From a virus, in the IMG/VR virus record IMGVR_UViG_3300033145_001062, positions 1-57,433 of that record: DNA of 57,433 nucleotides; one strand, written 5' to 3'. Numbering within the stretch: the first letter of the stretch is position 1; each line of letters starts with the position of its first letter. Positions 13,268-47,150 of the stretch are shown here, piece by piece. The position numbers and the translations under genes were made by a program. The notes below the pieces were generated by a model. That model saw only the letters and a program-made list of their open reading frames with translations. It did not search any database and was not told the origin of the DNA.

Positions 13268-13281
13268 AATTATCCCAATAT

Positions 13282-13383
13282 AAAAAAGCCTGTTCACAGC
13301 TGAGACACTGGAATTGCTCTGGATTGAGCAAGACAGATACTATAAACAGGCTTTTATTTGCTTTCATTTATCCAGCGTCTCAT
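13282..13383 (-). ncRNA. Pseudoknot RNA unit 3 (before HNH gene at 12599)
   Basis: Transcript predicted from 13383. A (13382-13371, UGAGACGCUGGA) pairs with C (13312-13301, UCCAGUGUCUCA) over 12 bases with one G-U. B (13351-13345, GCCUGUU) pairs with D (13294-13288, AACAGGC), followed by six Ts. Between B and C is the hairpin UUGCUC-AAUCCA-GAGCAA. The HNH ATG lies 15 bases after the T-run. Confidence 0.7.
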
Positions 13384-13389
13384 AATAAT

Positions 13390-13418
13390 ATTCTATAAAA
13401 ATCTAATACAAAAGTCAA
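13390..13418 (-). promoter_or_regulatory. Sigma-70-like promoter of RNA unit 3
   Basis: TTGACT, 17 bases, TAGAAT. Predicted start about 13383, one base before segment A. Confidence 0.75.
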
Positions 13419-31935: not shown

Positions 31936-32355
31936 TTAGCTTGCTGAAATAGTCAGCGCATCGGTTCCTTCAAGTGTAAACGTGAACACAGCAGCTCCGG
32001 CATCTGGAGAAGGAAAATCCAAAGATGTCAGAAAAGCTTTGCCTGTAGCTGTCACAGCACCGTCAGCAAAAGTGAAAATAACATCAATATAAACAGTACC
32101 TATATTAGTGTCACGGTTCTGCCAATGCTCAACAAGTACTTTTTTGCCGATGTTTCCAGTAAAATAGTTGCCAGTACCTGTCATAGACCAATCCCTTGTT
32201 GAAGAAATCAATTGCCGCCAATAACCAGAATCTCTATTAGTCAAATCAACTACAGCCTGACCGCAATGCAAAGAAAAATCCGTACTTTCTGCAATTGCTG
32301 CACCCTCTACCGTGAGGGTTGCTAAATGACCTGTCATTCCTGATGTTTCTCCCAT
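31936..32355 (-). CDS. Major tail tube protein, 139 aa
   Basis: SGMTGHLATLTVEGAAIAES then DWSMTGTGNYFTG and KAFLTSLDFPSPDAGAAVFT is the beta-sandwich pattern of TP901-like tail tube proteins. It would stack in rings to form the flexible tail. Located between the tail terminator and the tail chaperones, the canonical place. AGGAGG start. Confidence 0.8.
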   Translation of the reverse strand: MGETSGMTGHLATLTVEGAAIAESTDFSLHCGQAVVDLTNRDSGYWRQLISSTRDWSMTGTGNYFTGNIGKKVLVEHWQNRDTNIGTVYIDVIFTFADGAVTATGKAFLTSLDFPSPDAGAAVFTFTLEGTDALTISAS

Positions 32356-32383: not shown

Positions 32384-32815
32384 CTAAACAGGACTCATGT
32401 CCTGCCTAAATCTTAAAATTCCATGTCTTAAAAAAAGCTCAGGATTCTCTGGATCGAGCATAATTCCTGCGTAATCTAAATAAAAATGAATATTATAATA
32501 ACCTGTTATCGATAAAACAGACGATGTAAGCGCCTGAATAATATTATTCTGCATATCCGCACAAGCTTTGTCGCCTAGTCCGGAAGTCCGATCAACCCAA
32601 CTGTCAACCTGGAAGGCATTGTCCTCTCCCTCTGTATCTCTAGTTGTAAACTCTGCGGATTTTACTCCCATCAGCATACCAATAACATGATATGGGTATG
32701 CTGTATTGTCCGGTACATGATTATAAAATGAATATGAACTGGTTAAAGCATGAGTTGTCAATCGAGAATAAACTGCTGTTAAAAGTGCTGAAAATCCTAA
32801 TTTTCTTGTTGTCAT
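32384..32815 (-). CDS. Tail terminator protein (DUF3168-like), 143 aa
   Basis: FSALLTAVYSRLTTHALTSS with YPYHVIGMLMGV and FQVDSWVDRTSGLGDKACAD is typical of DUF3168 and lambda gpU-like tail completion proteins. It caps the tail tube and joins the head. Its normal partners (head closure and gp10-like genes) are separated from it by the sugar cassette at 32820-39823. Confidence 0.75.
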   Translation of the reverse strand: MTTRKLGFSALLTAVYSRLTTHALTSSYSFYNHVPDNTAYPYHVIGMLMGVKSAEFTTRDTEGEDNAFQVDSWVDRTSGLGDKACADMQNNIIQALTSSVLSITGYYNIHFYLDYAGIMLDPENPELFLRHGILRFRQDMSPV

Positions 32816-32819: not shown

Positions 32820-35006
32820 TTAAAACCTATTTATAACCCTGTGTATTTCATGTTTATTATTAAAATAATTATTTGACGATGATCGTCTAAAATAATTATA
32901 GTTTGAATCATGGATTGAATTCATATGAACTGCCTGAGCATTAAGACAACTTGCCACCTTCCATTTTGTTTTTTTCAATTCCAAAAAGAAATCTAAATGT
33001 TCCCATTCAACTTTGATTCTATTGTCCCACATGACATTATCAAAAACCGCTCTTTTAGCAAGAAAAAAATTAACAACTTGATCAGCATAAACATACATAG
33101 AGTCAATTGCCTTATATATTTTTTTTGCATTTGGGCGTCTAAAAAGCATTCCTCGGTCAATCTCAAATTGCACTCCCCTTTGATAGCTTTCGCTTGTTAG
33201 ATAATCGCCATTTTCTGAAAAAAGCATCCCAGAGCAAATACCTATATTTCTATTCATATCCAAAACACTTTTCATTTTAATAATAGATTCTGAATCCTGA
33301 AGTGCTATATCATCATCCATTATCAATATATAATCCTCTGTTGATTTTTTTATAATCTCATTTCTGCCAACTGATATTCCACTATTGAAGGGAAGTTTTA
33401 TTATCATATGACCATCATTTGTAAGCTGTTGATAGCGGTATTCCTTTTCAATGGAAATATCCCCATCATCAGCTATATAGAGCCTATAAGGAATTGATAA
33501 ATGTTCCTCTATCGAATCTATGGTTTTAAAAAGACTCTCCTCCCGCAAAAATGTTTTAATACCAACTGCTATTTTAGCATTATTTATTTTGGTTCTTTTT
33601 AAATTGCTTTTTACCGGCATAGTCACTATTTTGCCTTTTTTAAAAAAATCCTTATTAATGGCTTTGCAATCCTGCCAATATTTATAATTTCTATCAGGCG
33701 TTCTCCAATTGTCTCCATATCGTTCCCTAAGATATTGTTTTACAGGGAAAGGAACGAAACATCTTTTTCCACGAAAAAATATTTCCTGGAGATCCAAAAA
33801 AAGATTTTCTGAGAAAATAACCGGATAAAAAATCATATTTTTACCCCACCGCCCTTTATCATCGGGCCCAAAAACACCATGCCAGCGGAAATTGCCTTTG
33901 CGATAAAAGAAAAATAAATCAAGCTTTATGCCTTTTCTTTTAAAGCTTAGTTCAGTTTTCTTACCTTTATATTCCCATCCCTTATATAGGCTAAATCCGG
34001 CCTCCTGAAATTCTTTTTTAAAGGTTTCCCATAATCTAACATGTCGCCCATCCATGCCAATATCTATATCAGGGTCCCATCCGATAAAATTATTTTCCCT
34101 TATCGCACCTAAACATGTTCCTGCCTCCAGCCACCATTTGCACTTATGTTTATTAAGAATATTAATTGCAAGCTCTAAATTCTCATCTTTCATACTGTAA
34201 TCCGGAAACATAGAATCAAATGCAATAGGATTTTTTAAATTATAGGATGATACACTATATTTTATATTCCATTTTTTCCCAAACAATTTCCAGCCAGCAG
34301 GTCGCCCTCTATATTTTGTATAACCTGTTTTTATTACCATGTCTTTTTTATGATACATCCAAACATCCGGTGTATAAGCAACCTTCCAGGGTGTATCATA
34401 TTTTATGCGCAGGAAAAAATCTGAATGTTCAAATGCTGTTTTAAACTGATTATCCCATTTACAGCCTTCCCACACTATCCGCCTCATCATAAAAACATTC
34501 AGTATCAAATCACACAGGAAGTATTTAATTTTCCCGATTTTTTTCCACTCCGGATATTCAATTTTATTGATATAATGTGTATCATTTTCGATTTTTATAT
34601 TAGCTTCGTAATGCTGTTCTTTAACCTCATTAGTTTTTAATAGCCCGCCAACTATTCCGATTTTGTCTTTTTTATCCAGCACCTCTAACCACTTCTCAAG
34701 CTTAGTACCTTCGGTAAAAATAATATCATCTTCGCATACAACAATAGTTTTATATTTTTTTGGTATCAATTTAAGGCTTTCGTTTCTTACTCCACTCACC
34801 CCTAAATCAAATGGCAACTCAAATAGCTTGCATTTATGCTGCTGACAAAATTTCTTCTTTTGCTTATTCGGCTCTCCATTGTCGCCGATAAAAATGGCAA
34901 TTTCAGGGTAATATTTACGTATAGATTTAATACAGCGATAAAGGCACTCATCCCGCAGAAATGTTGTAACCATAATTGCAGTACTTTTAAAGCGATTTTC
35001 ATTCAT
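32820..35006 (-). CDS. Three-domain sugar-transfer protein: GT-A, LicD-like, GT-A
   Basis: 728 residues. The N-terminal GT-A fold (about 1-240) has VVCEDDIIF near 92. A central LicD-type domain has WWLEAGTCLGAIRENNFIGW (about 291-310) and DPDIDIGM. A second GT-A domain (about 480-728) has ILIMDDDIAL near 570. GT-A domains transfer sugars from nucleotide sugars at the DxD motif. LicD-type domains attach phosphocholine-like or other phosphodiester-linked groups. The triple fusion points to building a decorated glycan on one acceptor. First of a run of sugar genes in the structural operon. Confidence 0.75.
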   Translation of the reverse strand: MNENRFKSTAIMVTTFLRDECLYRCIKSIRKYYPEIAIFIGDNGEPNKQKKKFCQQHKCKLFELPFDLGVSGVRNESLKLIPKKYKTIVVCEDDIIFTEGTKLEKWLEVLDKKDKIGIVGGLLKTNEVKEQHYEANIKIENDTHYINKIEYPEWKKIGKIKYFLCDLILNVFMMRRIVWEGCKWDNQFKTAFEHSDFFLRIKYDTPWKVAYTPDVWMYHKKDMVIKTGYTKYRGRPAGWKLFGKKWNIKYSVSSYNLKNPIAFDSMFPDYSMKDENLELAINILNKHKCKWWLEAGTCLGAIRENNFIGWDPDIDIGMDGRHVRLWETFKKEFQEAGFSLYKGWEYKGKKTELSFKRKGIKLDLFFFYRKGNFRWHGVFGPDDKGRWGKNMIFYPVIFSENLFLDLQEIFFRGKRCFVPFPVKQYLRERYGDNWRTPDRNYKYWQDCKAINKDFFKKGKIVTMPVKSNLKRTKINNAKIAVGIKTFLREESLFKTIDSIEEHLSIPYRLYIADDGDISIEKEYRYQQLTNDGHMIIKLPFNSGISVGRNEIIKKSTEDYILIMDDDIALQDSESIIKMKSVLDMNRNIGICSGMLFSENGDYLTSESYQRGVQFEIDRGMLFRRPNAKKIYKAIDSMYVYADQVVNFFLAKRAVFDNVMWDNRIKVEWEHLDFFLELKKTKWKVASCLNAQAVHMNSIHDSNYNYFRRSSSNNYFNNKHEIHRVINRF

Positions 35007-36570
35007 TATTTAATATCTCCTTAACTAAGGGATGAGAGAATACAATTTCTTTTCTCTTAAAATGTTCCTGGCTTGTAAGATTATCAACTTTTTCCTTTTT
35101 CCATATTCTCGAGGAATACCAGTTATGATAAATCGTCGCCTTATCATTAATATAATACTCATCTCCCCACGCCCCATCATAGAATTTCTTTTTATTCGGT
35201 TCATATCCGGCAGGGATTCTCAAAACCTTATAACCTAAATTAATTACATCATAATAATTCTTGCGCCCTACATCATAACCATTCATGGGGGCAAAGCTCA
35301 GTTTGTTATCAATAAAGAATTTTGTTTCAAAGAATTGAAAACAGGCGTGGATTGGCTTTGTTCTCGGATTGCCTGTTACCCATTTTTTTGCTGCTTCCTC
35401 ATTATATAATTTTCCTTCAGGATCGCCGCCTTTAGCTGCTATAAGTTTTATTTTAGGATCAGAGTAAAATAGCTCTTTAAAATCATAGTCCCATTTACTA
35501 CGTTGAAGGTGTGCATCGATATCCAAAACCAGGCAAAAATATTCACTTGCTGTTCTAATAGCTAAATCTAATCCCCTTCCATGTCCTATATTTTTCCCTA
35601 AAAAAATGGTATTAACATCTTTTTGAGTTTCCAGCCATTCCTTAGAGCCATCTTCGGAAGCATTATCTATAATAATGATTTCATAGGGAAGGGCGGTAAA
35701 TTTTCTTACAGAATTTACCAATAGCTTCACCCAATCTAAACAGTTATAATTTACAGAAAGAATAGATACATTTATATCATTTACCACCCTTAATGTTTTG
35801 AGATTTTTCTTAATTGCTTTCCATCGTGGCGCAATCATGGGATGTTCAGGCCGGAAGTGATTGCGAGTTATGCCTCCATAATGTTTAACCCTTATATCCC
35901 AAAAATTCAAAGGCATTGGATGTATTTTATATTTGTTATTCGTCTCAAAAAGCACTTTTTCGGTGAACCTCCATGCTGTATCTCTGCTAACATTATCCTT
36001 TTTGACCTCTCTTTGACCTGGCGTTGTTATCACCAACCCAAGCTGAGAATAACCAGCTTTGTCGAATATATGCTTATATTTATAATCCTTATAGCTAATT
36101 CCGTTTTGCTGCCAATCATCTTCACCTTCAAATTCCCTGTAAAGATTGACATTGAGAAGCATAACGCAAGGCCAGTATACGGGGGCTATACAATGACCAT
36201 CTGCTGCAATTCCACCCCATCTAAATCTTGCAACGCCCAAATCATTAGCATTCCTAACCTTATTGGCCAGGAGTGAAAGCCAATCTCCCTGAATAATTTC
36301 ACAGTCACTATCCAAAAGACAGGCAAATTTTGTATCGCATTTTTTCAAAAGTGCTGACAAGGCTTGTCCATGTCCCAACTTGCGTTTGCTTTCTAAAAGC
36401 TTTATATCATTGCAATTTCTCAGGTATTCTTTATCTGCTGAGTCTTCAGGTGAAGAGTCCATGACAACAATTTTATAATCAATCCCTCTTGTTCGTTCAA
36501 TAATGCTCTCAATGCAGAGTTCTATAGCTTCATGTCCCTGATAGTTTGCAATCAAAATGGATATTGTCAA
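34999..36570 (-). CDS. Two-domain glycosyltransferase (family 2 type), 523 aa
   Basis: Two GT-A domains in tandem: MTISILIANYQGHEAIELCI with LLDSDCE near 85-91, and VSILSVNYNCLDWVKLLVNS with VLDIDAHL near 355. Both carry acidic metal-binding motifs. Such tandem enzymes can add alternating or successive sugars. It overlaps its neighbours, so it is expressed with the head-tail genes. Confidence 0.75.
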   Translation of the reverse strand: MTISILIANYQGHEAIELCIESIIERTRGIDYKIVVMDSSPEDSADKEYLRNCNDIKLLESKRKLGHGQALSALLKKCDTKFACLLDSDCEIIQGDWLSLLANKVRNANDLGVARFRWGGIAADGHCIAPVYWPCVMLLNVNLYREFEGEDDWQQNGISYKDYKYKHIFDKAGYSQLGLVITTPGQREVKKDNVSRDTAWRFTEKVLFETNNKYKIHPMPLNFWDIRVKHYGGITRNHFRPEHPMIAPRWKAIKKNLKTLRVVNDINVSILSVNYNCLDWVKLLVNSVRKFTALPYEIIIIDNASEDGSKEWLETQKDVNTIFLGKNIGHGRGLDLAIRTASEYFCLVLDIDAHLQRSKWDYDFKELFYSDPKIKLIAAKGGDPEGKLYNEEAAKKWVTGNPRTKPIHACFQFFETKFFIDNKLSFAPMNGYDVGRKNYYDVINLGYKVLRIPAGYEPNKKKFYDGAWGDEYYINDKATIYHNWYSSRIWKKEKVDNLTSQEHFKRKEIVFSHPLVKEILNNE

Positions 36571-37026
36571 TTATCCCTCCCACACTTTCCTGAGTTTTTT
36601 TGTCCTCCAGTCGCCATACCTTATCTTGAGATATTTTTCAACAGGATGGGGAACATTGTAATCTCTATTTTTATAATTCACTTTGTCAAAAGATTGGAGA
36701 AAAATTCGATCAGAAAATTCAAAATAAATGTCAAGCAATATACCATATTTAAGGAAATGCCTATTCTTGCCATATGTCCGCCTATTTATGAATCCATTTT
36801 TAATCAATTCTGCTGTAAGTTCCTCAAGTCCCCCTAATATTCCCACATCAATATCATTATCGCCGATTATATATCCACCATCCCTTACAAAGCCAAGACA
36901 ACTCCCATAAAGCAAAAATGTTTTAATTTTTAATCTCTCTGCTATATCCCAGTATTCATTTAACAATTTATCTGCAATATCTGGTATTTTACATGGGTCG
37001 ATATTCCCATATGGATGCCATCTCAT
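36571..37026 (-). CDS. LicD/nucleotidyltransferase-fold protein, 151 aa
   Basis: Start chosen at 37026 (ATGA overlap, TGGAG site). LLYGSCLGFVRDGGYIIGDN with DIDVGI is the LicD/fukutin motif (GSxLGxxR...DxD), and LLDIYFEF supplies the third acidic residue. Shorter than usual LicD proteins and lacking the C-terminal part. It resembles the central domain of the 728-residue protein, including the C-terminal KYLKIRYGDWRT. Confidence 0.75.
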   Translation of the reverse strand: MRWHPYGNIDPCKIPDIADKLLNEYWDIAERLKIKTFLLYGSCLGFVRDGGYIIGDNDIDVGILGGLEELTAELIKNGFINRRTYGKNRHFLKYGILLDIYFEFSDRIFLQSFDKVNYKNRDYNVPHPVEKYLKIRYGDWRTKKLRKVWEG

Positions 37027-37742
37027 TTTATACTCCAGTTGCTCCAATGTGTAATTTTTCGTGAAGCATGTTTCATGTAATATTTCTGATCTTCTGTCAG
37101 ATTTTCAGGATCAAGATACCAGTCTAAATGCCTTGCTGAATATGGAGCTAGAACCCTAGCTCCCCGCATCGGCCTTACCCATCGCTTTCCTGCCCTAATC
37201 ATCCCGAAAGTAGTATCAATAGGAGCAAACACGTATTTTATAATCTTATCTTCATACAGAATTGTATTTATCTTTCTTGAATGAAAATCTTTATGCCAAC
37301 CGCCGGAAAGCAACTTTTCTTTTTTCGGGTAACAATCTGGAATATCATCTATCCTCAACATCGGGCCAACTACGCTGATTTGCTTTATATTTTCCAGAAG
37401 ATAACTATAAACATCCAAAATATTACCCTCAATATTATCTAAAGCTATATCAGGGTCAGTCACTACATAATTGCTTTTAGGATGACTTTCGAAATAATTT
37501 TGAATAATCCCATCAATGCTATTGAGTTCAGCCTTTAAGCTGATTCTGTCTTGCCAGTATATTTTCATATTTTCATTTTCTAATTTTTTCAGAAAATCAA
37601 TCATGGGGCCGAAACTTGAACCAAAATCAATGATGACAACTTCAAAGGGTGTTTTGATATAATCATAGTAAGATTGCATTGACTTTTTCAGCGCCTCTAA
37701 TCTGTCACAAGTTATTATAAATATTGGTATCATCTTAATCAA
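37023..37742 (-). CDS. GT-A-type glycosyltransferase-like protein, 239 aa
   Basis: PIFIITCDRLEALKKSMQSY opens a GT-A-like Rossmann domain. VVTDPDIALDN near residue 93 takes the place of the DxD. KHASRKITHWSNWSIK ends it. Acceptor and donor unknown. Confidence 0.65.
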   Translation of the reverse strand: MIKMIPIFIITCDRLEALKKSMQSYYDYIKTPFEVVIIDFGSSFGPMIDFLKKLENENMKIYWQDRISLKAELNSIDGIIQNYFESHPKSNYVVTDPDIALDNIEGNILDVYSYLLENIKQISVVGPMLRIDDIPDCYPKKEKLLSGGWHKDFHSRKINTILYEDKIIKYVFAPIDTTFGMIRAGKRWVRPMRGARVLAPYSARHLDWYLDPENLTEDQKYYMKHASRKITHWSNWSIK

Positions 37743-38754
37743 CGCTTCCTTCTAATGAGTTTGCTGGATTCAAATCAAAGAGACCGCCACGTTTATTTAT
37801 TACATTTTTATATTCACTTGGAATTTCTTTGATAGCTCTTAATCCTTCAAAATCAAATGCTTTTCCGTAAGTTCTATTCCATCCACCGCAATGTTCTTTC
37901 AACAAGCAGGAATTACAAGGCTCTCCCTTAATTCCAACCTTTTTACTTGATCTGCTTGAAAATTCCCACACCCGCTCTATGTCTTCTGAGTAATGTCTAT
38001 ATTCCCATTCCCAGGGATCAAATAAAACATATCGTGCATTTGTAACATATTTCCAAAAATGGGGCTTTAATAGGCACATAGGGAAATATCTAAGAGTAAA
38101 AATTATTTTATTTTCTTCCATATACGCCATCGCCTCTTCTAAAACATCAACCAATTCAACGGGGTTAACCGCCACTTTTCTCAAATATAACCTCCAATGA
38201 TAATGAGGAAGAAAATTCAAAAGAGAAATATGAAATGCCCCAAGTTGAGCAGCCTTTTTGACGATATCGAAAATTTCATATTGATTCAATTGCTGAAGTG
38301 TTATATTAATTCTAAATGGGTAATTGTTTCTATTTAACCATTTTAAAAGTTCCATTTGTTTCTGTCCTGCTCTTTTTCTCTCTGCAATTTTATCTAATGT
38401 TTTCCCTAATCCGTGCATAGAAACCTGAAGATGATCCAATCCCAAATCATATAATCGCTGATATTTTTCAATACTTATACTACCATTAGTTATTATCAGA
38501 GATTTCATCCCTATTCTTGAAATATAACTAATAATCTCATCAATTTGATCATGTAACATCGGCTCGCCTTTTCCGCAAAGAACCACAGAATCACAACCAC
38601 GGCTTTTGCCGGCATCTATTTCCCTTTTAAGCTGATCTAAAGGAGTATCCTTATTTGTATGTAATTCTTCAAATCTTCTGAAAAAGCAATGTTTACAGTT
38701 CCAGTTACATTTCCATGTAACATTTTCCAGACCAACTACTTTACAAGGTTTCAT
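37735..38754 (-). CDS. Radical-SAM enzyme with C-terminal cysteine cluster, 339 aa
   Basis: CNWNCKHC (C16, C20, C23) is the CxxxCxxC motif binding a 4Fe-4S cluster and SAM. GKGEPMLH and LIITNGS follow as in MoaA/PqqE-type enzymes. A second cluster, CNSCLLKEHCGG, near the C-terminus suggests a SPASM-like or twitch domain. It could modify a peptide, lipid or sugar by radical chemistry. Rare among phage structural genes; here it is sandwiched between a glycosyltransferase and a methyltransferase. Confidence 0.8.
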   Translation of the reverse strand: MKPCKVVGLENVTWKCNWNCKHCFFRRFEELHTNKDTPLDQLKREIDAGKSRGCDSVVLCGKGEPMLHDQIDEIISYISRIGMKSLIITNGSISIEKYQRLYDLGLDHLQVSMHGLGKTLDKIAERKRAGQKQMELLKWLNRNNYPFRINITLQQLNQYEIFDIVKKAAQLGAFHISLLNFLPHYHWRLYLRKVAVNPVELVDVLEEAMAYMEENKIIFTLRYFPMCLLKPHFWKYVTNARYVLFDPWEWEYRHYSEDIERVWEFSSRSSKKVGIKGEPCNSCLLKEHCGGWNRTYGKAFDFEGLRAIKEIPSEYKNVINKRGGLFDLNPANSLEGSVD

Positions 38755-39269
38755 ATTTTCCTAAAAATTATTAAATATCTTTCTCTTCCAATCTCTTGAT
38801 ATTTAGGTTTTATGTTTTTATTCACAAAATCTGTAACATCTTTTTTATAACCATAATCATGAAAGGCTATAATTCCACCTTTTCTAACAAAGCCAATCCA
38901 TTCCATATCCTTATTCAATGCCTTTTCTGTATGTTTGCTGTCTATAAATAGCCCATCTATTATCATGCTCCAAGATCCTAAGACATCTTCACTTTTTTTC
39001 TTGTGCCAAATGATATTTTTGCCTTTGATCCTTGATTTAAAGATCTTCTCTACTCCATTCATGATCACTTTATCATTAGGATCATATCCATTTATGAACG
39101 GGTCTATAGCAATGACTATATTATTTTCAGCAAGTGCGCATGTTGTTTTTCCTACGTAACTACCTATCTCAACAATTATCTTGTTGCTTTCTATGACCTT
39201 TTTAAGCAGATCAACTTCCTTGTCTGTCATTGAAATTCTTTTATAAGCCGTCTCTAAATTCATTGCCAT
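38751..39269 (-). CDS. SAM-dependent methyltransferase (class I), 172 aa
   Basis: IIVEIGSYVGKTTCALAENN then VIAIDPFINGY and IDGLFIDSKHTEKALNKDME with GGIIAFHDYG match class-I methyltransferases of the group common in glycan loci. Coupled to the radical-SAM gene by 4 bases. Methylation of a sugar is the simplest reading. Confidence 0.75.
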   Translation of the reverse strand: MAMNLETAYKRISMTDKEVDLLKKVIESNKIIVEIGSYVGKTTCALAENNIVIAIDPFINGYDPNDKVIMNGVEKIFKSRIKGKNIIWHKKKSEDVLGSWSMIIDGLFIDSKHTEKALNKDMEWIGFVRKGGIIAFHDYGYKKDVTDFVNKNIKPKYQEIGRERYLIIFRKI

Positions 39270-39823
39270 TTGCTCCTGAAATAATCTCTATTTTGAGTAT
39301 TAAAAGGGTTTTTATGTTCATTCCTATGTACTATTTTCACTTTATTCGCAACAAAGAATTTCCCTCCCAGTTGTTTACAGAAATCAGTATCCTCAAAACC
39401 ACTTCCTTTATAGTTCTCGTCAAATCTCAATTTGGTATTTCTGAAAGCACAGCAAGCTGTAATCATAGTTCTGACTTCAATAAAATCCTTCGATATATCT
39501 AAATTTCCATAATTTGTTTTATGCAGTGTACCATCAGGATTTAACAATCTTGCTCCAACCATGCTTGCTTTTGTTTTTTTCAATGCATTAATTAAATCCT
39601 TATCCCATCCGCAAGGGAAACCCTCTACATCATCATCACACATAATTATAAATTCGCCCCGTGCTTTATCTAATCCAATATTTCTATTTTTTGCCGCAGA
39701 CTTATTAGCATTTGATACTATAATCAAATCCAATTCATATACCACGGAGTTTTTGATTTCAGAAATTAAATCTGCTATTTCCTTTTCTGTTTTTATTGTA
39801 GGAATTATTATACTTACCTTCAT
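39260..39823 (-). CDS. Family 2-type glycosyltransferase, 187 aa
   Basis: KVSIIIPTIKTEKEIADLIS opens the domain and FIIMCDDDVEGFP is the DDD metal site. GSGFEDTDFCKQLGGKF is the usual ED acceptor motif. It overlaps the gp10-like gene by 4 bases, which ties the sugar cassette to the head-tail operon. Confidence 0.8.
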   Translation of the reverse strand: MKVSIIIPTIKTEKEIADLISEIKNSVVYELDLIIVSNANKSAAKNRNIGLDKARGEFIIMCDDDVEGFPCGWDKDLINALKKTKASMVGARLLNPDGTLHKTNYGNLDISKDFIEVRTMITACCAFRNTKLRFDENYKGSGFEDTDFCKQLGGKFFVANKVKIVHRNEHKNPFNTQNRDYFRSKWQ

Positions 39824-40248
39824 TTCAGCCTCACATCCTTTTTCATAATTATCCCAATAGCCTTAATCGTCTCACCTTCGTGCATAAAATAAGCAGGGAA
39901 AAGATACGGTTGAGCTGCCATTTTTTTCGTTCCGTGTTCTTGCCAGTAGCCGTACTTGACATTAGTTCCAACGACATAAACTAAATCTTTTGGCCCTTCA
40001 GGTTTTTTTATCCCATCGCCTGGCTTTGCCTTTTTCCCTGTTTTCCCTTCGCTCATAGGACTGTCAGCCCAATTAGTTGAGATTGAGGCCCGGAGACGAC
40101 CCGTATCAACAGGACACCCCTCTTTAGCAGCCAACTCAATCTTAAAAGCCTGTTTTTTCAGCCTGTCCTTAATAGCTTGAGTTTTGATAATCTGATATTT
40201 TTTCAAATTAGCAACGACCTCTGGAATTCCTTTTACATATGTAGGCAT
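39820..40248 (-). CDS. HK97 gp10-like neck/tail completion protein, 142 aa
   Basis: KRLKKQ-type helix then PVDTGRLRASIS and GTNVKYGYWQEHGTKKMAAQ PYLFPA are the landmarks of HK97 gp10 proteins. It joins the connector to the tail. It follows the head closure gene without a gap. Confidence 0.9.
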   Translation of the reverse strand: MPTYVKGIPEVVANLKKYQIIKTQAIKDRLKKQAFKIELAAKEGCPVDTGRLRASISTNWADSPMSEGKTGKKAKPGDGIKKPEGPKDLVYVVGTNVKYGYWQEHGTKKMAAQPYLFPAYFMHEGETIKAIGIIMKKDVRLK

Positions 40249-40589
40249 TATATTTCCCTCCCTACCTCTACACAGGCAAGTTTCATAAATCGCCCTTTCT
40301 CCCTCCAGGGCAGTACAAGCTTAATGTCATACACTCGGCTTCCCCAGTAAATACGCTGCGATTCTTCAACTCCTGATAAATATTCCATGTACCAGAAAAC
40401 CTCAGCAAAAACATCTACTTTGTTATATTTAAATATCTCCTTACCTTTAGGGATAAGCACTAAAGCCCCCTTAACCCTTTTATATGTAGTCGTCCAGGTT
40501 GAAGGCAAATAACCACCCGCACCATCTGGAGCACCTTTAGTAAAATCCTTTATCTTCACTGTCTTATCCAAGTGACCTGCAAAGCTCAT
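40248..40589 (-). CDS. Head closure (Gp16-like) protein, 113 aa
   Basis: MSFAGHLDKTVKIKDFTKGA then GGYLPSTWTTTYKRVKGALV and WGSRVYDIKLVLPWREKGRF fit the small beta-barrel head-tail adaptors of the SPP1 gp16 type. It plugs the connector after packaging. Confidence 0.75.
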   Translation of the reverse strand: MSFAGHLDKTVKIKDFTKGAPDGAGGYLPSTWTTTYKRVKGALVLIPKGKEIFKYNKVDVFAEVFWYMEYLSGVEESQRIYWGSRVYDIKLVLPWREKGRFMKLACVEVGREI

Positions 40590-40960
40590 CTCCTACTCCT
40601 AATCATTGACGTGGGGTTCACGCCATATGTCCCATCAACAGAAGGTTGCATCGGGCCTAGCTCACGTATTAGCCGCACTTTCCTTCTTATCCTTCGTCTA
40701 ATATTTATATCCTTATAATATATTTCAACTGATATATCACTTGTTACATCGCTTATTTTCTCTATTTTTAGTATTTTTGCACTTATAAATTTATGCCTAA
40801 ATTGATTAAATAATTTTTTCTCCATATCTGGATACATAGCGCTCCATGAAATCTGACAATACCTGGCCATCATCTTCCAGTTCCGCTTCTCCCAAGCCTC
40901 AAGGAATTTAGCCATAGTCCATTCAGGGCTTTTTTTAGGATAGTCAGTTGACTTAATCAT
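40586..40960 (-). CDS. Hypothetical connector-region protein, 124 aa
   Basis: SPEWTMAKFLEAWEKRNWKM then beta-strands and an arginine-rich segment (NIRRRIRRKVRLIREL). The fold may be NTF2-like (helix, then curved sheet). Unknown; its place suggests a neck protein. Confidence 0.55.
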   Translation of the reverse strand: MIKSTDYPKKSPEWTMAKFLEAWEKRNWKMMARYCQISWSAMYPDMEKKLFNQFRHKFISAKILKIEKISDVTSDISVEIYYKDINIRRRIRRKVRLIRELGPMQPSVDGTYGVNPTSMIRSRR

Positions 40961-41091
40961 TTTATTATTCCGATTTTAGATTCTCGTTTGCTTTTCTGCA
41001 CACGCCGTCTAATTATTTGCAATCTAAAGAAATGAATGATCGTGACCAAAAGCACAGCAATACCAACCCATACTATGTAAATTTCTTTCAT
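40957..41091 (-). CDS. Membrane microprotein in the head-tail operon, 44 aa
   Basis: MKEIYIVWVGIAVLLVTIIH then a basic end (RRRVQKSKRESK). One membrane segment. ATGA overlap with the next gene. Unexpected among virion genes. Confidence 0.55.
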   Translation of the reverse strand: MKEIYIVWVGIAVLLVTIIHFFRLQIIRRRVQKSKRESKIGIIK

Positions 41092-41092
41092 C

Positions 41093-42247
41093 CTAAAAAC
41101 TCCTCTTTTTAAATAAATCTAGCCCGTTTTGAATCTCTATTGGCATTATGGCTCTGGCCTTTTCAAAATCCGATATGGAGATTTTCTCATACTCATAATC
41201 TGCGCCTTCACCAAACACCTCGCTTTTCAATTCCTCATCACCCGCTCGCTTTGATTTGCCATAAACATAGCATACCAGGTGTATGCAAAATTGCTCTAAT
41301 ACATAAGGAATTGTAATGTAGCCGGCTGTAAAGTCAATAAAATATTCCTGGCCTGCGCTGAAACCGCCGGCTTTATACAAAATCCCCTCATTCCTAGCCT
41401 CGGAGGGATTCAACAGCTTATAATCCGTTATGTCATCATCTACAGTCTCGCAATAAGCCTGCTTTGTAGCATTTACAAACATTGACGGTCTAATCAGGAG
41501 TTCAGAAGCATTTCTGGTAGCCGTATCCGTAGCCATTGTAGTTATTGACCAGCCTTTCGCTAAAGCATTTATAGCAGTTATTAGGTCATCTATTTTGTCA
41601 TAATCAGTAAGGGTAAGCTCCGTATCATCAGCATTTGTCCCACCATCTACGATGAGTCTGATTTTAGTCGACGTTATCTCGACTGTACAAAAATTAGCAT
41701 CTGTGGATGTATTTTTAATTGAGAACGAATTAGCCCGCCCCACAGACAGCCTTGTTACTCTTGTTACTGGATACTGCTCAAGTAGTAATTTGCTGAATCC
41801 TGCGCCATAATATATTTCTCTTGTGTAATTAGTTGTCTTGAGGATCCGGTTGCAATAACGATTAATCATGTCGGAGGCTCGGTCTATTAGTCTCTCGATG
41901 AGATATCTATCCTGTATCGTAAACACCTGCTCATTTTCATCACCCAGCGTATTTAAAGCACCCGTTACAAGTAAATCATCCGACTCAGCAGAACCATGAT
42001 AAATAAGCCCAGCCTTCCAATCGGTAGTATCGTTTATTTCATCTACAAGTTTGGTCAGCGTATCATAGGTTGCAAAAAGAATATCGCCTCCAGGAGTTAA
42101 GGTTAATCTGTCGTCTTTCACCTCTAATGTTGAAGGGTCTACAGCTCCGGCATAATATACCCAGAGTGCATCACGTTTAGCGTCTTCTCCTAAAAAAGCT
42201 AAAACTTCAGAAATACTGGTTAAGCTTATTGTGCTGTCAAGTGCCAT
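41093..42247 (-). CDS. Head-tail connector protein with insertion, 384 aa
   Basis: IQDRYLIERLIDRASDMINR near 118 and YGKSKRAGDEELKSE near the end fit gp6-like connectors, which form the ring below the portal. It is much longer than the usual 100-200 residues. The extra parts at 45-100 and 180-260 are repeats of a small beta domain (LTPGGDILFATYDTLTKLVD; LTDYDKIDDLITAINAL), also seen in other phage connectors. Confidence 0.65.
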   Translation of the reverse strand: MALDSTISLTSISEVLAFLGEDAKRDALWVYYAGAVDPSTLEVKDDRLTLTPGGDILFATYDTLTKLVDEINDTTDWKAGLIYHGSAESDDLLVTGALNTLGDENEQVFTIQDRYLIERLIDRASDMINRYCNRILKTTNYTREIYYGAGFSKLLLEQYPVTRVTRLSVGRANSFSIKNTSTDANFCTVEITSTKIRLIVDGGTNADDTELTLTDYDKIDDLITAINALAKGWSITTMATDTATRNASELLIRPSMFVNATKQAYCETVDDDITDYKLLNPSEARNEGILYKAGGFSAGQEYFIDFTAGYITIPYVLEQFCIHLVCYVYGKSKRAGDEELKSEVFGEGADYEYEKISISDFEKARAIMPIEIQNGLDLFKKRSF

Positions 42248-42263
42248 TTATCTCTCCTATAAT

Positions 42264-42899
42264 TTATTCTAAATCAGTATGCTCATGCCATTTCATTCTG
42301 AAACTTCCTTCATTATTATCCAGATAGGACGTTGCTCTGGCTAAATATTTTGTGTTCTTTTTTAAGACAAATCCTAAACTTTTCCCGTCGCCCCCTGCCT
42401 TTCCTGTAGCCTCAGTTGCTATTAGTGCCGCAGCGGTAGCAGCTGTAATAGTAGGGCCGGTTGTAATAGTGAGCGTAGATGTAATATCTGAATTTCTATT
42501 CCTATTTATCGGGGTTATAGCACTGCCTCCTGATACATTGAATTCCGCTGCATTTCCTGTATCCTCAAAAAGCTCCCAGTATGCCGGTAGATTCGCCTCT
42601 CCATAGAGAGCTATATGTGAATGTTTTGTTGTATTTGGAGTTATGATATAAAATGATAAAGGCGATAATATATCAAAAGCATCAACCGCACTTCTCTGAC
42701 TCACAACAAAAGCATGTCCTGCATGAACCTCATAATCCATAAAATCTATTACCTGAAGAGAAAAAGTTGCAGGGTCTATTCTTAAATTCTGATAGGTTGT
42801 ACCAGTATATCCCTGTATCCGTACCACTGCATCAACAACATTATAACTATAATCGTCAATATCTGAATCATATTCCCATTTTACTCTATAATCTGACAT
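42264..42899 (-). CDS. Virion protein, probable decoration or fibre protein, 211 aa
   Basis: MDYEVHAGHAFVVSQRSAVD, ITPINRNRNSDITSTLTITT and KSLGFVLKKNTKYLARATSY with WHEHTDLE are landmarks of a widespread phage structural family next to capsid genes. Their biochemical role is not established. They probably bind the capsid surface. Confidence 0.65.
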   Translation of the reverse strand: MSDYRVKWEYDSDIDDYSYNVVDAVVRIQGYTGTTYQNLRIDPATFSLQVIDFMDYEVHAGHAFVVSQRSAVDAFDILSPLSFYIITPNTTKHSHIALYGEANLPAYWELFEDTGNAAEFNVSGGSAITPINRNRNSDITSTLTITTGPTITAATAAALIATEATGKAGGDGKSLGFVLKKNTKYLARATSYLDNNEGSFRMKWHEHTDLE

Positions 42900-42900
42900 T

Positions 42901-43080
42901 TTATTTCTCCTTCTCTGCTACCTCTATCATTTTATTCTTAGGAGGCCTGCTTAAAGCCTTTGCATAACCGGCCTCAATGACCACTGCTGCAAACTGCGGC
43001 CTAGACGACCTCTTAAATCTATCGCCCTTCTTCCAGCAGCTAGTCCAATCCTTAGTAAATACGATTACATCATCATTCAT
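42901..43080 (-). CDS. Small head-region protein, 59 aa
   Basis: MNDDVIVFTKDWTSCWKKGD then RFKRSSRPQFAAVVIEAGYA. The pattern of a short strand pair then a helix resembles small proteins encoded near phage capsid genes. ATGA overlap with the glycosyltransferase gene. Confidence 0.55.
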   Translation of the reverse strand: MNDDVIVFTKDWTSCWKKGDRFKRSSRPQFAAVVIEAGYAKALSRPPKNKMIEVAEKEK

Positions 43081-44222
43081 TTAAGCCTCTTTTCCATTTC
43101 CTTAAACACTGGAAGCCAGTATTTCTTCCATACATTATTCCAATCATATTCCATAATATTAGTCATTGCTTTTTTTCTCATGGAATCAAATCCGCCTGAC
43201 TCCCAGAGAGAAAAAGCATCCTCTAATTTCTCTAATATCGCAGATGGTTTAGCCTCAAATCTCCACGTCTCATTTGGCAGCCATCGACTGTCATCCTCAG
43301 TCGTATTGATAAGCCATCCTGTTTTGCAGAGTTCCGTACAGCTTGTTGTATTTGTCAGTATTGCAGGAATTCCGCAGGCTTGAGCCTCTATTATCGGGAG
43401 CCCAAAACCTTCGCCTTTTGTTGGAAGGCAGAATACATCGAATCCATTGTAAATATCAGCTAGCCAATCCGGATCTATTCTACTCAGTGCATAATCCAAC
43501 TGTGGAGGCCATATCAGGGCTTTATCTATCCCAAGATTAGCTGCTATTTTATGATAATTTATAAAGCTTTGCCTTGAATCCCTCTCATTTGCAAGGGAAT
43601 GAAGATAAAGTATAGATTTTGGATGCCTCTTGTGAAATTCCTTAAAAGCCCGCATAAGGGGTACGTATCCTTTCCGGTCATCTCCATAATTAAGACCTAC
43701 AGAGCCTATTACAAAATGTTCATCTGAAAGCCCGAATTCACCTCTAAATGCTTTCCTTGCCTCGGGCTTAGGCTTGAATATTTTTGTATCAACCCCAAAA
43801 GGTGCATAAAAAGGTTTAAGCCCTATAGACTTCAACTCCCTCTCCCCATGCTTTGACATCGCCACTTGCATTCCAGTATTTTTGCAGACATCAGCTAATG
43901 TTTTGCTTATATACTCTGTATCTACGGGAACATAGGCTACCCATTTCTCTTTTGGATACTGCCTTTTGCCTTGCAGAAGCCAGATATCCCAAAGAGTAAA
44001 GATATAATCAAAATTTTCAGTTTCAATCATTTGATTAATGAAAAATGTATCCGTTCCTTCAAATATCTCAAACTCATCCCATTTATACCATCCATGATCC
44101 GCATGTTTAGTCCCGACTCTCACAAAATGACCTGCATCCCTAAGCCTCCGGATTATCTCTTTTGTGACTACTGCATAACCTGAATTGGCCATAGGCGATG
44201 CCGAATGCCAAAGTATTCTCAT
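43077..44222 (-). CDS. Family 4-type glycosyltransferase, 381 aa
   Basis: GT-B fold. N-terminal ILWHSASPMANSGYAVVTKE, a middle MSKHGERELKSIGLKPFYAP FGVD, and GEGFGLPIIEAQACGIPAIL (the EGFGL.E motif that binds the donor) near 275. These transfer sugars with retention. It sits between two structural genes next to the decoration-like gene, separate from the main sugar cassette. Confidence 0.85.
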   Translation of the reverse strand: MRILWHSASPMANSGYAVVTKEIIRRLRDAGHFVRVGTKHADHGWYKWDEFEIFEGTDTFFINQMIETENFDYIFTLWDIWLLQGKRQYPKEKWVAYVPVDTEYISKTLADVCKNTGMQVAMSKHGERELKSIGLKPFYAPFGVDTKIFKPKPEARKAFRGEFGLSDEHFVIGSVGLNYGDDRKGYVPLMRAFKEFHKRHPKSILYLHSLANERDSRQSFINYHKIAANLGIDKALIWPPQLDYALSRIDPDWLADIYNGFDVFCLPTKGEGFGLPIIEAQACGIPAILTNTTSCTELCKTGWLINTTEDDSRWLPNETWRFEAKPSAILEKLEDAFSLWESGGFDSMRKKAMTNIMEYDWNNVWKKYWLPVFKEMEKRLK

Positions 44223-44293: not shown

Positions 44294-44740
44294 TTAAGCA
44301 GGCAATGTTGCCTGTGCATATCTTGGTCTCAACTGTAATAGCACACCGCCAACCTTCTCCGTCCCGCTTCCCGCATCAGTTGCGAGTTTAAACCCCACAT
44401 ACTGAAAACCGCTATCTACATCCAGGTCTTCGCCTCGAACCTGAGCCACCAGAACATCTGTATCGCTTGTAGCGGTAGACGTGAATGTATCGCTTGCACC
44501 TGAAACTGTCTTAGAGCCGCTGCCATCTGAAGCAGTTGCCTGCCACATGGCAAGTGTTAATACCGCATCGCTTGCAACTCCAGAAGCATGAGCAAGACCC
44601 ACAACCAGATCATAATTTGCCATGTTGACAAATTCAGCAGAAACAACTGTGTCAGCAGGTGTAGTCTCTCCGCCCAATGCAGAGCTGAAAGCACCATATC
44701 TTGAACGAACGTTCTCTGTAAATTTGTGTATGTTTGCCAT
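44294..44740 (-). CDS. Probable capsid decoration protein, 148 aa
   Basis: Small, rich in A, S, T and G with regular beta-strands (DLVVGLAHASGVASDAVLTL; SGFQYVGFKLATDAGSGTEK). Directly after the second capsid gene with a good AGGAGG site. Composition and place fit an exterior cement or tube-like protein. No family. Confidence 0.6.
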   Translation of the reverse strand: MANIHKFTENVRSRYGAFSSALGGETTPADTVVSAEFVNMANYDLVVGLAHASGVASDAVLTLAMWQATASDGSGSKTVSGASDTFTSTATSDTDVLVAQVRGEDLDVDSGFQYVGFKLATDAGSGTEKVGGVLLQLRPRYAQATLPA

Positions 44741-44756: not shown

Positions 44757-45827
44757 TTAGCTTGTTGTTGTTAATACAATAAACATCCCCAGGTCATTAG
44801 CTCCTCGCTTCGGTGTAATGTCTGCACTCAGAAGCGGTTGGCCGTCTGTCCTGAGAACAATCTTCCAAAACGTCTCATCAGTTTCAAAGCCGTATGTTTC
44901 GCTTGTCTCAAGAGATGTGTCTTCATATTTAACATGACGAGACGCTGATATTCTCATTTCCCTGTCGCCTATAAGATAATGCCCGTGACCAAAGTCAGCA
45001 AGGATTATGTCGCCTTCCGTTCCCATTGCCTGGCATTTCTCCGTAGGGATGAACGGTATCCCCCAAAGCATACGATTGCTAAGATCTAGAGCTGTCGCTT
45101 GATTTGCTGCCGGTGATGTCGCCTCGAATAATTCACCTATCACATCGGGATTCAATAGCCAGACAGCGCTTTCCCAGCTTCGTGGGAGTAACCGCTTGGC
45201 CATATTAGCAATATCTCTCCAGTCAATTACTCCAACCGCAGCCCGTGTAACTTGTGTTCTGCATCCGGCCTGTTCAATACCTAAGGGCATTCCACCACCT
45301 GTACCATTGATAAAAGCATCATCTTCAACGAATCGAATAGCCTGCCCGAATGATGTTTTAGCAAATTCGCCAAAACTCTCATAGTCATCCTCAAGTTCAT
45401 TACTAACAAAACAACTGCCTACTAGTTTGTGAACATTTAACTCAACTTTACCAATTGCCGGTTTAGATATAGCATCAACTTTTGATCCTCGTTCCTCTAC
45501 CCAACTAAATGTAATTCCACCAAATAGATTTGAGCTTCTATCAGAATCCTTTAATACTCGTATCACCAGCGAATCTCTTTTCATCGGGAAAACCTTAGCC
45601 CGTGGCCTAACAATCGCATTTTCCATAGCTGCATGATAAATTTCTTTAGCCCATTGTTTCGGGACTAAAGCTCCACCCTGTGAGTCTGTTCCTTCCTCCA
45701 TGTGCCCTGCGGTCTTTCCAAAAATTAGCCGACTATCCGGCTGTCCTTCGCCATCGTAAGCTTTACGGACTTTGACAAGAAATTCACCTACACATTTAAA
45801 TCCGCCCGTTTTGTCTTTATATTCCAT
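44757..45827 (-). CDS. Second HK97-type major capsid protein, 356 aa
   Basis: GTDSQGGALVPKQWAKEIYH and MENAIVRPRAKVFPM open the HK97 fold, followed by WVEERGSKVDAISKPAIGKV and EDDAFINGTGGGMPLGIEQA. It has only about 45 residues before the core, not a scaffold domain. It shares the fold and key motifs with the product of 45837-47150 but is clearly divergent. A minor capsid subunit, a pentamer, or an unused duplicate are possible. Confidence 0.85.
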   Translation of the reverse strand: MEYKDKTGGFKCVGEFLVKVRKAYDGEGQPDSRLIFGKTAGHMEEGTDSQGGALVPKQWAKEIYHAAMENAIVRPRAKVFPMKRDSLVIRVLKDSDRSSNLFGGITFSWVEERGSKVDAISKPAIGKVELNVHKLVGSCFVSNELEDDYESFGEFAKTSFGQAIRFVEDDAFINGTGGGMPLGIEQAGCRTQVTRAAVGVIDWRDIANMAKRLLPRSWESAVWLLNPDVIGELFEATSPAANQATALDLSNRMLWGIPFIPTEKCQAMGTEGDIILADFGHGHYLIGDREMRISASRHVKYEDTSLETSETYGFETDETFWKIVLRTDGQPLLSADITPKRGANDLGMFIVLTTTS

Positions 45828-45836
45828 TTCGATCTC

Positions 45837-47150
45837 TTAGCTTGTGGCGTTATCTAGTACAACAAAAGGTGACATTGAGGTTACAGGTGCAGCTGCATTT
45901 CTAGGAGTTATTACACTCTGCGGCCAACATTGACCAGCAACCCTAAGCACAAATCTCCAGCAATCCTCATCAGTAACAAAAGCAACGTGTGAGCTGAAGT
46001 CTATTGTGATTGGCTGCCGATTGAAAATGAGGTAATACCGCATATCAAAATAACCAACATCGCCTTGTGTACCAAGACTTGGCATTTTCTCACTAATGAA
46101 AAACGGCCTTCCAAAGATTCTGCCAGGGATAGGATTCTGTGCGCCCATGTCTCGATTGATCCAGATAGGATTTGAAGTAGCAGCGGGAGCAGTGTCGCCA
46201 GATGTCATACCAATAAGGTCAGGAAGCACACTAGGATTAATTACCCATACTGCATAAGGATGAGAAGCAGGAAGCATGCAAGCATACATTTCACGTAAGT
46301 CTTCAAAATATAATCGACTAGATGTATTCCTGAGAACAGCCTTTACGCAACTACAATTCTGAATCCCCAACGGTTGACCAGCACCAGAGCCGTTAAGAAA
46401 AGCATCATCTGTAAAATAACCCCATGCAGAACCAAACATCCGCTTAATCAGCGGAACAAGAGCAATGGCAGAATCATCTCGCAGCTCATGTGAAAGATAG
46501 GTTACCCCCGCTAATTTATGCGGGGTCAGAGTCAATTGTCCGAATTCAGGTTTAGTAGCCCCTTTTATTCCCTTCTCTGCTACCCATTTAGCTTGTACTC
46601 CACCGAATACTGTCGTTGCATGAGAGGTGTCATCTACAAATGGAATTTTAATCGAATCTGTTTTAACTGGAGGGATAATTGTAGCCCCATTTGGCATTAC
46701 TATTGAATTTTCAAGAGCAATCATTTGAAGGTCTGATTTAAAAACCTCAGGTACAAGAAATCCACCCTGGCTGTCTTCGCCCTCTACCATATGGCCTGCT
46801 GTTTTAATATTACCTCCAGATGTAATAAAAGTTAATCGTTCATCAACAACTCTTTTCGCCAAGCCAATATCTTTAGCTTTAATTATTGCCTCTAAATATT
46901 CCTCGGGTTTTTCAAACTCTTTGCCTCTCTCAACTGCCTCTTCTTCCTTTTCGGTAGGTTTTAGACCGTCAAGAACTTCATTAACTTTCTTTTTGTCTAG
47001 ATTTATTTTGCTTTCTTCAGCTAATTCACCTAACTTATCCTCAACTGCTTTTTTTGCAAACTCATCAAGATTTTTCCTCGTTGTATCCAGAATATGCTGA
47101 GTGAGTTCAGCTTCTGTCATTGTTTTTTTCTCTTTATTTTCTTCACTCAA
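45837..47150 (-). CDS. HK97-type major capsid protein with scaffold domain, 437 aa
   Basis: The first 110 residues are charged coiled coil, a delta-type scaffold domain. The core begins near MVEGEDSQGGFLVPEVFKSD and continues with WVAEKGIKGATKPEFGQLTL and TDDAFLNGSGAGQPLGIQNC. Starts at TTG 47150, seven bases after GGAG; an ATG 12 codons later is possible. The fused prohead protease upstream is expected to cleave the scaffold domain. Confidence 0.9.
   Translation of the reverse strand: MSEENKEKKTMTEAELTQHILDTTRKNLDEFAKKAVEDKLGELAEESKINLDKKKVNEVLDGLKPTEKEEEAVERGKEFEKPEEYLEAIIKAKDIGLAKRVVDERLTFITSGGNIKTAGHMVEGEDSQGGFLVPEVFKSDLQMIALENSIVMPNGATIIPPVKTDSIKIPFVDDTSHATTVFGGVQAKWVAEKGIKGATKPEFGQLTLTPHKLAGVTYLSHELRDDSAIALVPLIKRMFGSAWGYFTDDAFLNGSGAGQPLGIQNCSCVKAVLRNTSSRLYFEDLREMYACMLPASHPYAVWVINPSVLPDLIGMTSGDTAPAATSNPIWINRDMGAQNPIPGRIFGRPFFISEKMPSLGTQGDVGYFDMRYYLIFNRQPITIDFSSHVAFVTDEDCWRFVLRVAGQCWPQSVITPRNAAAPVTSMSPFVVLDNATS

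What the first reader, a model, noticed from the sequence alone, without database searches (positions are those of the whole stretch)
32820..44222. Sugar-modification cassette inside the head-tail operon
Four GT-A-type glycosyltransferase genes (one with two GT domains, one GT-LicD-GT), a separate LicD-like gene, a radical-SAM enzyme and a methyltransferase lie between the neck gene (39820) and the tail terminator (32815). A GT-B enzyme lies next to the decoration gene. Overlapping starts show co-translation with virion proteins. Glycosyltransferases near structural genes are known to glycosylate capsids and tails of some actinobacteriophages. Adding LicD and radical-SAM chemistry suggests an elaborate modified glycan on the particle.
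Basis: partly seen in the sequence, partly recalled or inferred. Interest (0 to 1): 0.75.

Follow-up and report, generated by a model that had tools for sequence, protein, structure and literature searches.

The report
Swappable sugar-building island in phage
An uncultured tailed phage carries seven sugar-building and sugar-modifying genes wedged between the genes that join its head to its tail; relatives carry different sugar genes in exactly the same place, so these viruses probably paint their own particles with sugars that they change quickly, which matters because such coats can hide phages from things that bind or attack them.

Summary
Seven translationally coupled genes (39823-32820, minus strand) lie between neck1 and the tail terminator: GT2, methyltransferase, radical SAM, probable GT-A, LicD-like, GT2-GT2, GT2-LicD-GT2. 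A separate GT-B gene is at 43077-44222. In IMG/VR relatives that span the site a sugar cassette is always there (9 contigs plus the window), but its content differs: aminotransferase, acetyltransferase, epimerases, formyltransferase, deacetylases, methyltransferases, sulfotransferase-like genes. Only the last gene's GT pair, abutting the tail terminator, is constant; between its GT domains sit, optionally, LicD or LicD plus a CDP-alcohol-type cytidylyltransferase. Two contigs 96% identical from that gene onward carry different cassettes upstream. No cassette protein looks membrane-bound, so usual host-envelope remodelling is unlikely; no thymidylate-synthase-type base-modification gene was found. 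Best explanation: a cytosolic pathway that glycosylates virion subunits, with a conserved core GT pair and exchangeable decorating enzymes. Glycosylation is inferred, not shown. Ser-ending tails of both capsid proteins and the tail tube protein are candidate acceptors, but HK97 ends similarly, so this is only a lead. New variant of a known kind (Che8/Corndog-type virion glycosylation).

The parts
39260..39823 (-). GT2 (GT-A) glycosyltransferase, 187 aa, first cassette gene; start overlaps the neck1 stop by 4 bp
   Evidence: Pfam PF00535 5e-9; relative (42%) next to a related radical SAM gene in an otherwise unrelated viral contig L043
38751..39269 (-). SAM methyltransferase (Methyltransf_24), probable sugar O-methyltransferase
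   Evidence: PF13578 3e-10; methyltransferases recur in most relatives' cassettes
37735..38754 (-). Radical SAM enzyme with CxxxCxxC and a C-terminal CxxCx5CGG motif (SPASM/twitch-like)
   Evidence: PF04055 2e-20; nearest solved chains PqqE, SkfB, MoaA; motifs CNWNCKHC and CNSCLLKEHCGG read in sequence
37023..37742 (-). Probable GT-A glycosyltransferase (TDPD motif), no family match
   Evidence: weak; AlphaFold uninformative
36571..37047 (-). Small stand-alone LicD-like nucleotidyltransferase-fold protein, catalytic motif GSCLG...DNDIDVG
   Evidence: PF04991 1e-7; motif
34999..36570 (-). Two GT2 domains in one protein (separate genes in L026 and L027)
   Evidence: PF00535 8e-28, two stretches
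32820..35006 (-). GT2 - LicD - GT2 protein, 728 aa; its C-terminal GT is the most constant part of the island
   Evidence: Pfam; AlphaFold: two GT-A domains at pLDDT about 90, LicD part poor; Foldseek best B4GALNT1, then bifunctional chondroitin/heparosan synthases and ppGalNAc-transferases
39820..40248 (-). neck1 / tail completion protein, fixed upstream border of the island
   Evidence: phrog_5 4e-18
32384..32815 (-). tail terminator, fixed downstream border of the island
   Evidence: phrog_176 3e-14
43077..44222 (-). GT-B glycosyltransferase next to the small virion-operon gene 44294; second, separate sugar locus
   Evidence: PF13692 2e-12, phrog_2170 2e-30
44294..44740 (-). Small protein with an S/T-rich stretch (possible decoration protein); this type co-occurs with the GT-B gene
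   Evidence: type >=92% identical: GT-B follows in 7 of 7 contigs; other types (<=50%): GT-B in 0 of 10 contigs with at least 1.6 kb of room downstream
45837..47150 (-). HK97-fold major capsid protein 1, C-terminus ...LDNATS; candidate acceptor
   Evidence: PF05065 4e-35; C-terminal Ser in 12/12 distinct relatives
44757..45827 (-). HK97-fold major capsid protein 2, C-terminus ...VLTTTS; candidate acceptor
   Evidence: phrog_10 1e-28; C-terminal Ser in 12/12
31936..32355 (-). major tail (tube) protein, C-terminus ...LTISAS; candidate acceptor
   Evidence: phrog_1407 2e-14; C-terminal Ser in 20/20

Best explanation
The island encodes a cytosolic pathway that builds a short, heavily decorated glycan on the phage's own virion subunits during late gene expression. 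Proposed steps: (1) the conserved GT pair of the last gene (32820-35006), always beside the tail terminator, attaches or starts the glycan on an abundant structural protein (inferred; the capsid and tail tube proteins are the likeliest acceptors); (2) the other GTs lengthen or branch it using host nucleotide sugars (inferred from GT2 folds and acidic motifs); (3) the LicD domain adds a phospho-alcohol or phosphonate group from a CDP/CMP-linked donor (inferred; relatives fuse a matching cytidylyltransferase next to it); (4) the methyltransferase caps sugars and the radical SAM enzyme alters a sugar or an acceptor residue (inferred, least certain). The variable genes are exchanged between phages so that related particles carry different glycans, probably to escape binding by lectins, receptors, predators or rivals that recognise particles. 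Shown here: gene content, operon linkage, fixed site, variable content, exchange breakpoint, absence of export machinery. Not shown: any glycan.
For: Fixed site: of relatives found by neck and tail queries (not by the sugar genes), 9 of 9 with at least 500 bp after neck1 have a sugar gene next, and 10 of 10 with sequence before the tail terminator have the constant GT. Variable content: sugar aminotransferase, GNAT, epimerases, formyltransferase, PIG-L, deacetylase, methyltransferases. Exchange: L022 and L054 are 95.7% identical over 4,402 bp from the start of the last gene, but only patchy 70-77% matches upstream. The cytidylyltransferase occurs only fused next to LicD, with an intact HxGH motif in 4 lineages and a decayed copy in others; its best PDB relatives include ethanolamine-phosphate and glycerol-3-phosphate cytidylyltransferases. 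No cassette ORF of 170 looks like a membrane protein; six single marginal peaks only. The GT pair folds like B4GALNT1, two-GT-domain polymerases and protein GalNAc-transferases. Precedent: cluster O mycobacteriophages (PMC4351075).
Against: No acceptor is identified. The C-terminal Ser tails of both capsid proteins and the tube protein (44 of 44) are suggestive, and Che8 and Firecracker show the same, but HK97 (both proteins) and the lambda tube protein also end in Ser without glycosylation known to me, so the sign is not diagnostic. The host is unknown, so the supply of donor sugars cannot be checked. Enzymes acting on the cell surface can be encoded in late operons too.
Confidence: 0.7

Rival explanations
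1. The enzymes remodel the host envelope (teichoic acid, capsule or O-antigen) to block superinfection or disguise the infected cell, as proposed for licD in Flandersviridae and for the GT of Gratiaviridae.
For: LicD enzymes classically add phosphocholine to teichoic acids; phage licD and a late-operon phage GT have been read this way (PMC8008677). The PHROG for the GT2-GT2 protein is a GtrB-like family.
Against: No flippase, polymerase, GtrA/GtrB-type membrane anchor or oligosaccharyltransferase among 170 cassette ORFs; the genes are locked between virion genes in every lineage, late for most exclusion roles; the licD of Flandersviridae lies in the replication module and is present in only some members.
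Confidence: 0.13
2. The GTs and decorating enzymes hypermodify phage DNA bases.
For: Virus GTs are known to put diverse glycans on DNA (Pyle 2024, cited in PMC12619734); sub-threshold hit to a TET-associated GT in L030; one GT weakly hits a hydroxymethylcytosine-glucosyltransferase PHROG.
Against: No thymidylate synthase/hydroxymethylase family member in the window or four long relatives, with working controls; no TET/JBP match (whose control did not ring, so weak); no such gene among the scanned early ORFs; the genes sit in the head-tail region, not with replication genes.
Confidence: 0.07
3. A generic accessory-gene hotspot: sugar genes accumulate here as morons with unrelated functions, without a joint pathway.
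For: Content is highly variable and homing-endonuclease-like genes also insert nearby.
Against: Apart from endonuclease-like genes nearly every identifiable gene is sugar-related, and the GT pair is conserved in all lineages; aminotransferase plus acetyltransferase, and LicD plus cytidylyltransferase, form chemically coherent pairs.
Confidence: 0.07

Closest known systems
Cluster O mycobacteriophages (Corndog, Firecracker) modification genes
   Same: GTs and an O-methyltransferase inside the virion structural operon of a siphophage (PMC4351075); Corndog virion proteins reported glycosylated (Freeman 2023 as cited in PMC12363180)
   Different: There four genes between portal and protease, with no LicD, cytidylyltransferase, radical SAM or amino-sugar genes annotated; here a variable island between neck1 and tail terminator
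Che8 (cluster F) virion glycosylation
   Same: Phage-encoded GT glycosylates virion proteins (as cited in PMC12363180, PMC12619734)
   Different: No GT is annotated among Che8 genes 1-18; the capsid GT is gp110 (PMC12363180)
Megavirinae fibril glycosylation clusters
   Same: Virus-encoded, clade-specific clusters of 6-33 genes making bacterial-like amino sugars on the particle (PMC10117803); giant viruses also encode LicD-GT proteins found here by fold search
   Different: Giant eukaryotic viruses; clusters can be much larger; unrelated virion
licD in Flandersviridae gut phages
   Same: Phage-encoded LicD enzyme (PMC8008677)
   Different: Stand-alone next to ispD in the replication module, not fused with GTs in the virion operon
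Salinibacter ruber phages (e.g. 4_2, OR896287)
   Same: A GT2 relative of both GT domains of 32820-35006 lies in the virion operon, second gene after the capsid gene, preceded by a P-loop protein resembling the sulfotransferase-like cassette genes
   Different: One GT only, different position, 24% identity; no glycosylation study found in the held library

Membership tests
Virion-glycosylating phage system (Che8/Corndog type) | GT genes expressed with the virion genes | tested here: met
   Seven coupled genes between neck1 and tail terminator; expression itself is inferred from gene coupling
Virion-glycosylating phage system (Che8/Corndog type) | Glycans present on capsid and/or tail tube subunits | not testable with these tools
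   Needs mass spectrometry of virions
Virion-glycosylating phage system (Che8/Corndog type) | Soluble, cytosolic GTs | tested here: met
   No hydrophobic segment above threshold in the window's cassette proteins
gtr-type serotype conversion | Membrane GtrA flippase, membrane-anchored GtrB, membrane Gtr GT | tested here: not met
DNA base glycosylation | Base hydroxymethylase/TS-type enzyme in the genome | tested here: not met
   PF00303 absent in 5 records, 9 of 14 control genomes ring; records may be incomplete
DNA base glycosylation | TET/JBP-type base hydroxylase in the genome | tested here: inconclusive
   No match, but no control genome rang
LicD family (PF04991) | Profile match above cut-off and nucleotidyltransferase motif G[ST]xxG...DxDxD | tested here: met
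   42.6 and 32.6 bits vs 22.6; motif intact in both window copies and in 11 relative contigs
LicD family (PF04991) | Phospho-alcohol transfer from a CDP donor | not testable with these tools
   Indirect: fused cytidylyltransferase domain in relatives
Radical SAM superfamily | CxxxCxxC and SAM-binding core | tested here: met
   PF04055 1.6e-20; CNWNCKHC near the N-terminus
GT2 family (PF00535) | Profile match; GT-A fold with acidic motif | tested here: met
   for 32820; for 34999 and 39260; 37023 is inconclusive

The most novel reading that the evidence does not exclude
A previously undescribed phage serotype locus: a fixed slot between the neck and tail-terminator genes where whole glycan pathways are swapped behind a conserved core GT pair, including a built-in LicD/cytidylyltransferase unit that puts phospho-alcohols or phosphonates on glycans at the C-termini of capsid and tail tube subunits, giving tailed phages O-antigen-like particle serotypes.
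Probability: 0.35. Interest if true: 0.85.

Novelty: new variant of a known kind. Interest (0 to 1): 0.62.

Why it matters
Phage virion glycosylation is known from a few actinobacteriophages, where it shields particles from antibodies; what it is for in an environmental phage is open. A locus where the structural genes stay and the sugar pathway is swapped argues that particle surface identity itself is under diversifying selection. It also offers a family of phage enzymes (GT pairs with LicD and cytidylyltransferase modules) for making phospho-decorated glycoproteins without membranes, and cultured Salinibacter phages as a possible way to test it.

Tried and rejected
(1) Megablast of the region against phage genomes: no match. 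(2) Radical SAM in bacterial genomes: none; a host assignment from capsid relatives gave only three MAG contigs, the nearest (64%) a 6.6 kb virus-like contig in an Aminicenantes MAG, too weak to name a host. (3) Single-sequence AlphaFold of 37023-37742 failed; no viral relatives found. (4) C-terminal Ser tails as a diagnostic glycosylation mark: 44/44 in this family and present in Che8 and Firecracker, but HK97 and lambda counterexamples demote it to a lead; the probable tail chaperone 31495 also ends in S/T in most relatives. (5) GT-B/44294 pairing: perfect association but adjacent genes, and the capsid tree needs only two changes, so linkage alone could explain it. (6) A methanogen virus (vir525) gives the best TerL hit but is a different virus annotated with a tail sheath. 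(7) Sulfotransferase identity of the P-loop cassette genes: no Pfam hit and no phage hit, left as 'sulfotransferase-like'.

Full report
What is there. The window is an IMG/VR virus record of 57,433 bp, a siphophage-like genome with its late genes on the minus strand: TerL, portal, Mu-F-like protein, a protease-position protein with a AAA domain, two tandem HK97-fold capsid proteins (about 35% identical to each other), a small protein with an S/T-rich stretch, a GT-B gene, adaptor, stopper, neck1, the sugar cassette, tail terminator, major tail protein, two probable tail-assembly chaperones (named by position), tape measure. The cassette is seven genes at 39823-32820: GT2, Methyltransf_24, radical SAM, probable GT-A, LicD-like, GT2-GT2, GT2-LicD-GT2. 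Starts and stops overlap or nearly touch through the whole run from neck1 to the tail terminator, and neither promoter-like nor terminator-like sites exceed chance.

Is it a fixed feature? Relatives were collected with capsid, tail and neck queries, independent of the sugar genes. Nine of nine contigs with at least 500 bp downstream of a related neck1 have a sugar gene next, and ten of ten with sequence upstream of a related tail terminator have the constant GT domain. Distant neck1 relatives at 27-29% identity (L039-L042) had no match to any cassette family nearby. A search with the constant GT then added further lineages; these were chosen by the GT and are not counted above. Nine contigs besides the window span the whole interval, with 2 to 9 cassette ORFs of at least 140 aa.

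What varies and what does not. The last gene always ends in the pair GTn...GTc. Five architectures occur: GTn-GTc; GT-GTn-GTc; GTn-LicD-GTc (window); GTn-LicD-cytidylyltransferase-GTc; and a longer form of the latter with about 260 extra N-terminal residues (L069) (the extra N-terminal GT was confirmed by Pfam for L030 and is inferred from length for the others). GTc is 72-78% identical among near relatives, close to the tail terminator (77-88%), while GTn drops to 48-51% in the L030 and L032 types and the rest of the window's cassette is not shared with them beyond generic GT2 similarity. Relatives' other genes include a DegT sugar aminotransferase with a GNAT acetyltransferase, two NAD epimerases, a second DegT with a formyltransferase and a PIG-L deacetylase, a polysaccharide deacetylase, methyltransferases, and P-loop 'GRCGSKF' proteins that resemble sulfotransferases but match no Pfam family. 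L022 and L054 are 95.7% identical over 4.4 kb from the start of the last gene into the tape measure gene, but upstream only patches of 70-77% align: the cassette was swapped while the flank stayed.

Chemistry. The LicD motif is intact in both window copies and in the relatives. The cytidylyltransferase domain is found only next to LicD; it keeps HxGH in L028, L038/L058, L062 and L069, and has lost it in L060, L063 and L068. Its solved relatives are a domain deposited as phosphoenolpyruvate phosphomutase (5x3d; from my own knowledge the Fom1 hydroxyethylphosphonate cytidylyltransferase domain), then ethanolamine-phosphate and glycerol-3-phosphate cytidylyltransferases. This points to a CDP-alcohol or CMP-phosphonate donor for LicD; which one is open. 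The window lacks that domain and would have to use a host-made donor. The radical SAM enzyme has PqqE/SkfB/MoaA-type relatives in the PDB; its substrate is unknown. AlphaFold of the 728-aa protein gives two good GT-A domains and a poor LicD region; the best PDB folds are B4GALNT1, the bifunctional chondroitin and heparosan synthases, LARGE1 and protein GalNAc-transferases, and viral hits include giant-virus GT and LicD-GT proteins.

Where the glycan goes. None of 170 cassette ORFs (some contigs counted more than once) looks like a membrane protein: six single marginal hydrophobic peaks, in protein types that are normally soluble where a family could be named. That argues against lipid-linked export and gtr-type conversion and for a cytosolic acceptor. 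Thymidylate-synthase-type base modification genes are absent with working controls; TET/JBP was not found but its control was uninformative. A virion protein is therefore the likeliest acceptor. Both capsid proteins and the tail tube protein end in a short S/T-rich tail with a terminal Ser in every distinct relative (12/12, 12/12, 20/20), unlike nearly all other families; glycans have been reported at the C-termini of capsid and tail tube subunits of mycobacteriophages (PMC12619734), and Che8 and Firecracker capsid and tail proteins end in Ser too. Yet HK97 and lambda provide counterexamples. More distant capsid relatives (L047, L048) end in Thr-rich tails on capsid and probable tail protein, but their contigs are too short to know whether they carry GTs.

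A second locus. The GT-B gene 43077-44222 accompanies one type of the neighbouring protein 44294 in all seven contigs that have it and is missing in all ten contigs with other types and enough room; on the capsid-2 tree the pair changed at least twice. This would fit an enzyme with its substrate, but the genes are adjacent and could simply travel together.

Verdict. Function on the virion is inferred. Kind: virion glycosylation of the Che8/Corndog sort, in a richer and modular form. Literature searches in the held library did not find this locus described, but most subscription papers are not held.

Noticed in passing
window 44757-47150: Two adjacent HK97-fold capsid genes, about 35% identical, kept as a pair in the near relatives examined; a mixed capsid or division of labour is possible.
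   Followed up: partly
window 45837, 44757 and 31936 (MCP1, MCP2, MTP C-termini) and relatives: All three major virion proteins end in S/T-rich tails with terminal Ser in 44 of 44 distinct relatives; HK97 and lambda V are counterexamples for specificity.
   Followed up: partly
L047:9437-10978, 12782-13390; L048:3-614, 4389-5021: Distant relatives have Thr-rich mucin-like C-terminal tails on capsid and probable tail tube proteins (e.g. TTTTEAPTTTTELPTTTTT).
   Followed up: partly
L043:516-1652: The viral contig with the closest non-family radical SAM + GT2 pair also encodes a protein with a long Ser/Thr-rich stretch, a possible O-glycosylation acceptor.
   Followed up: no
L026:4312-5163, L049:3679-4593, L051:90-1004, L055:2-871, L037:4228-4605: Homing-endonuclease-like genes sit beside or inside the sugar island in several relatives and could drive its exchange.
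   Followed up: no
OR896287.1 (L045) 28886-30639: Cultured Salinibacter ruber phages carry a P-loop sulfotransferase-like gene and a GT2 gene right after the capsid gene; the capsid protein and a possible tail protein (32930-33388) both end in AGS.
   Followed up: partly
window 48057-51101: The protease-position protein of 1014 aa carries a AAA+ ATPase domain; the region that contains it is missing from the same gene in some relatives (L005-L007).
   Followed up: no
window 23228-24163: Protein with an N-terminal hydrophobic segment, a Pro/Glu-rich linker and no Pfam or PHROG match, at the end of the tail module.
   Followed up: no
window 11259-11918: DUF5131 gene in the early region amid several HNH endonuclease genes.
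   Followed up: no
L038:6461-7708: 415-aa protein made of repeats of the type YxGDIPLSVLPD between the 44294 homologue and the adaptor.
   Followed up: no
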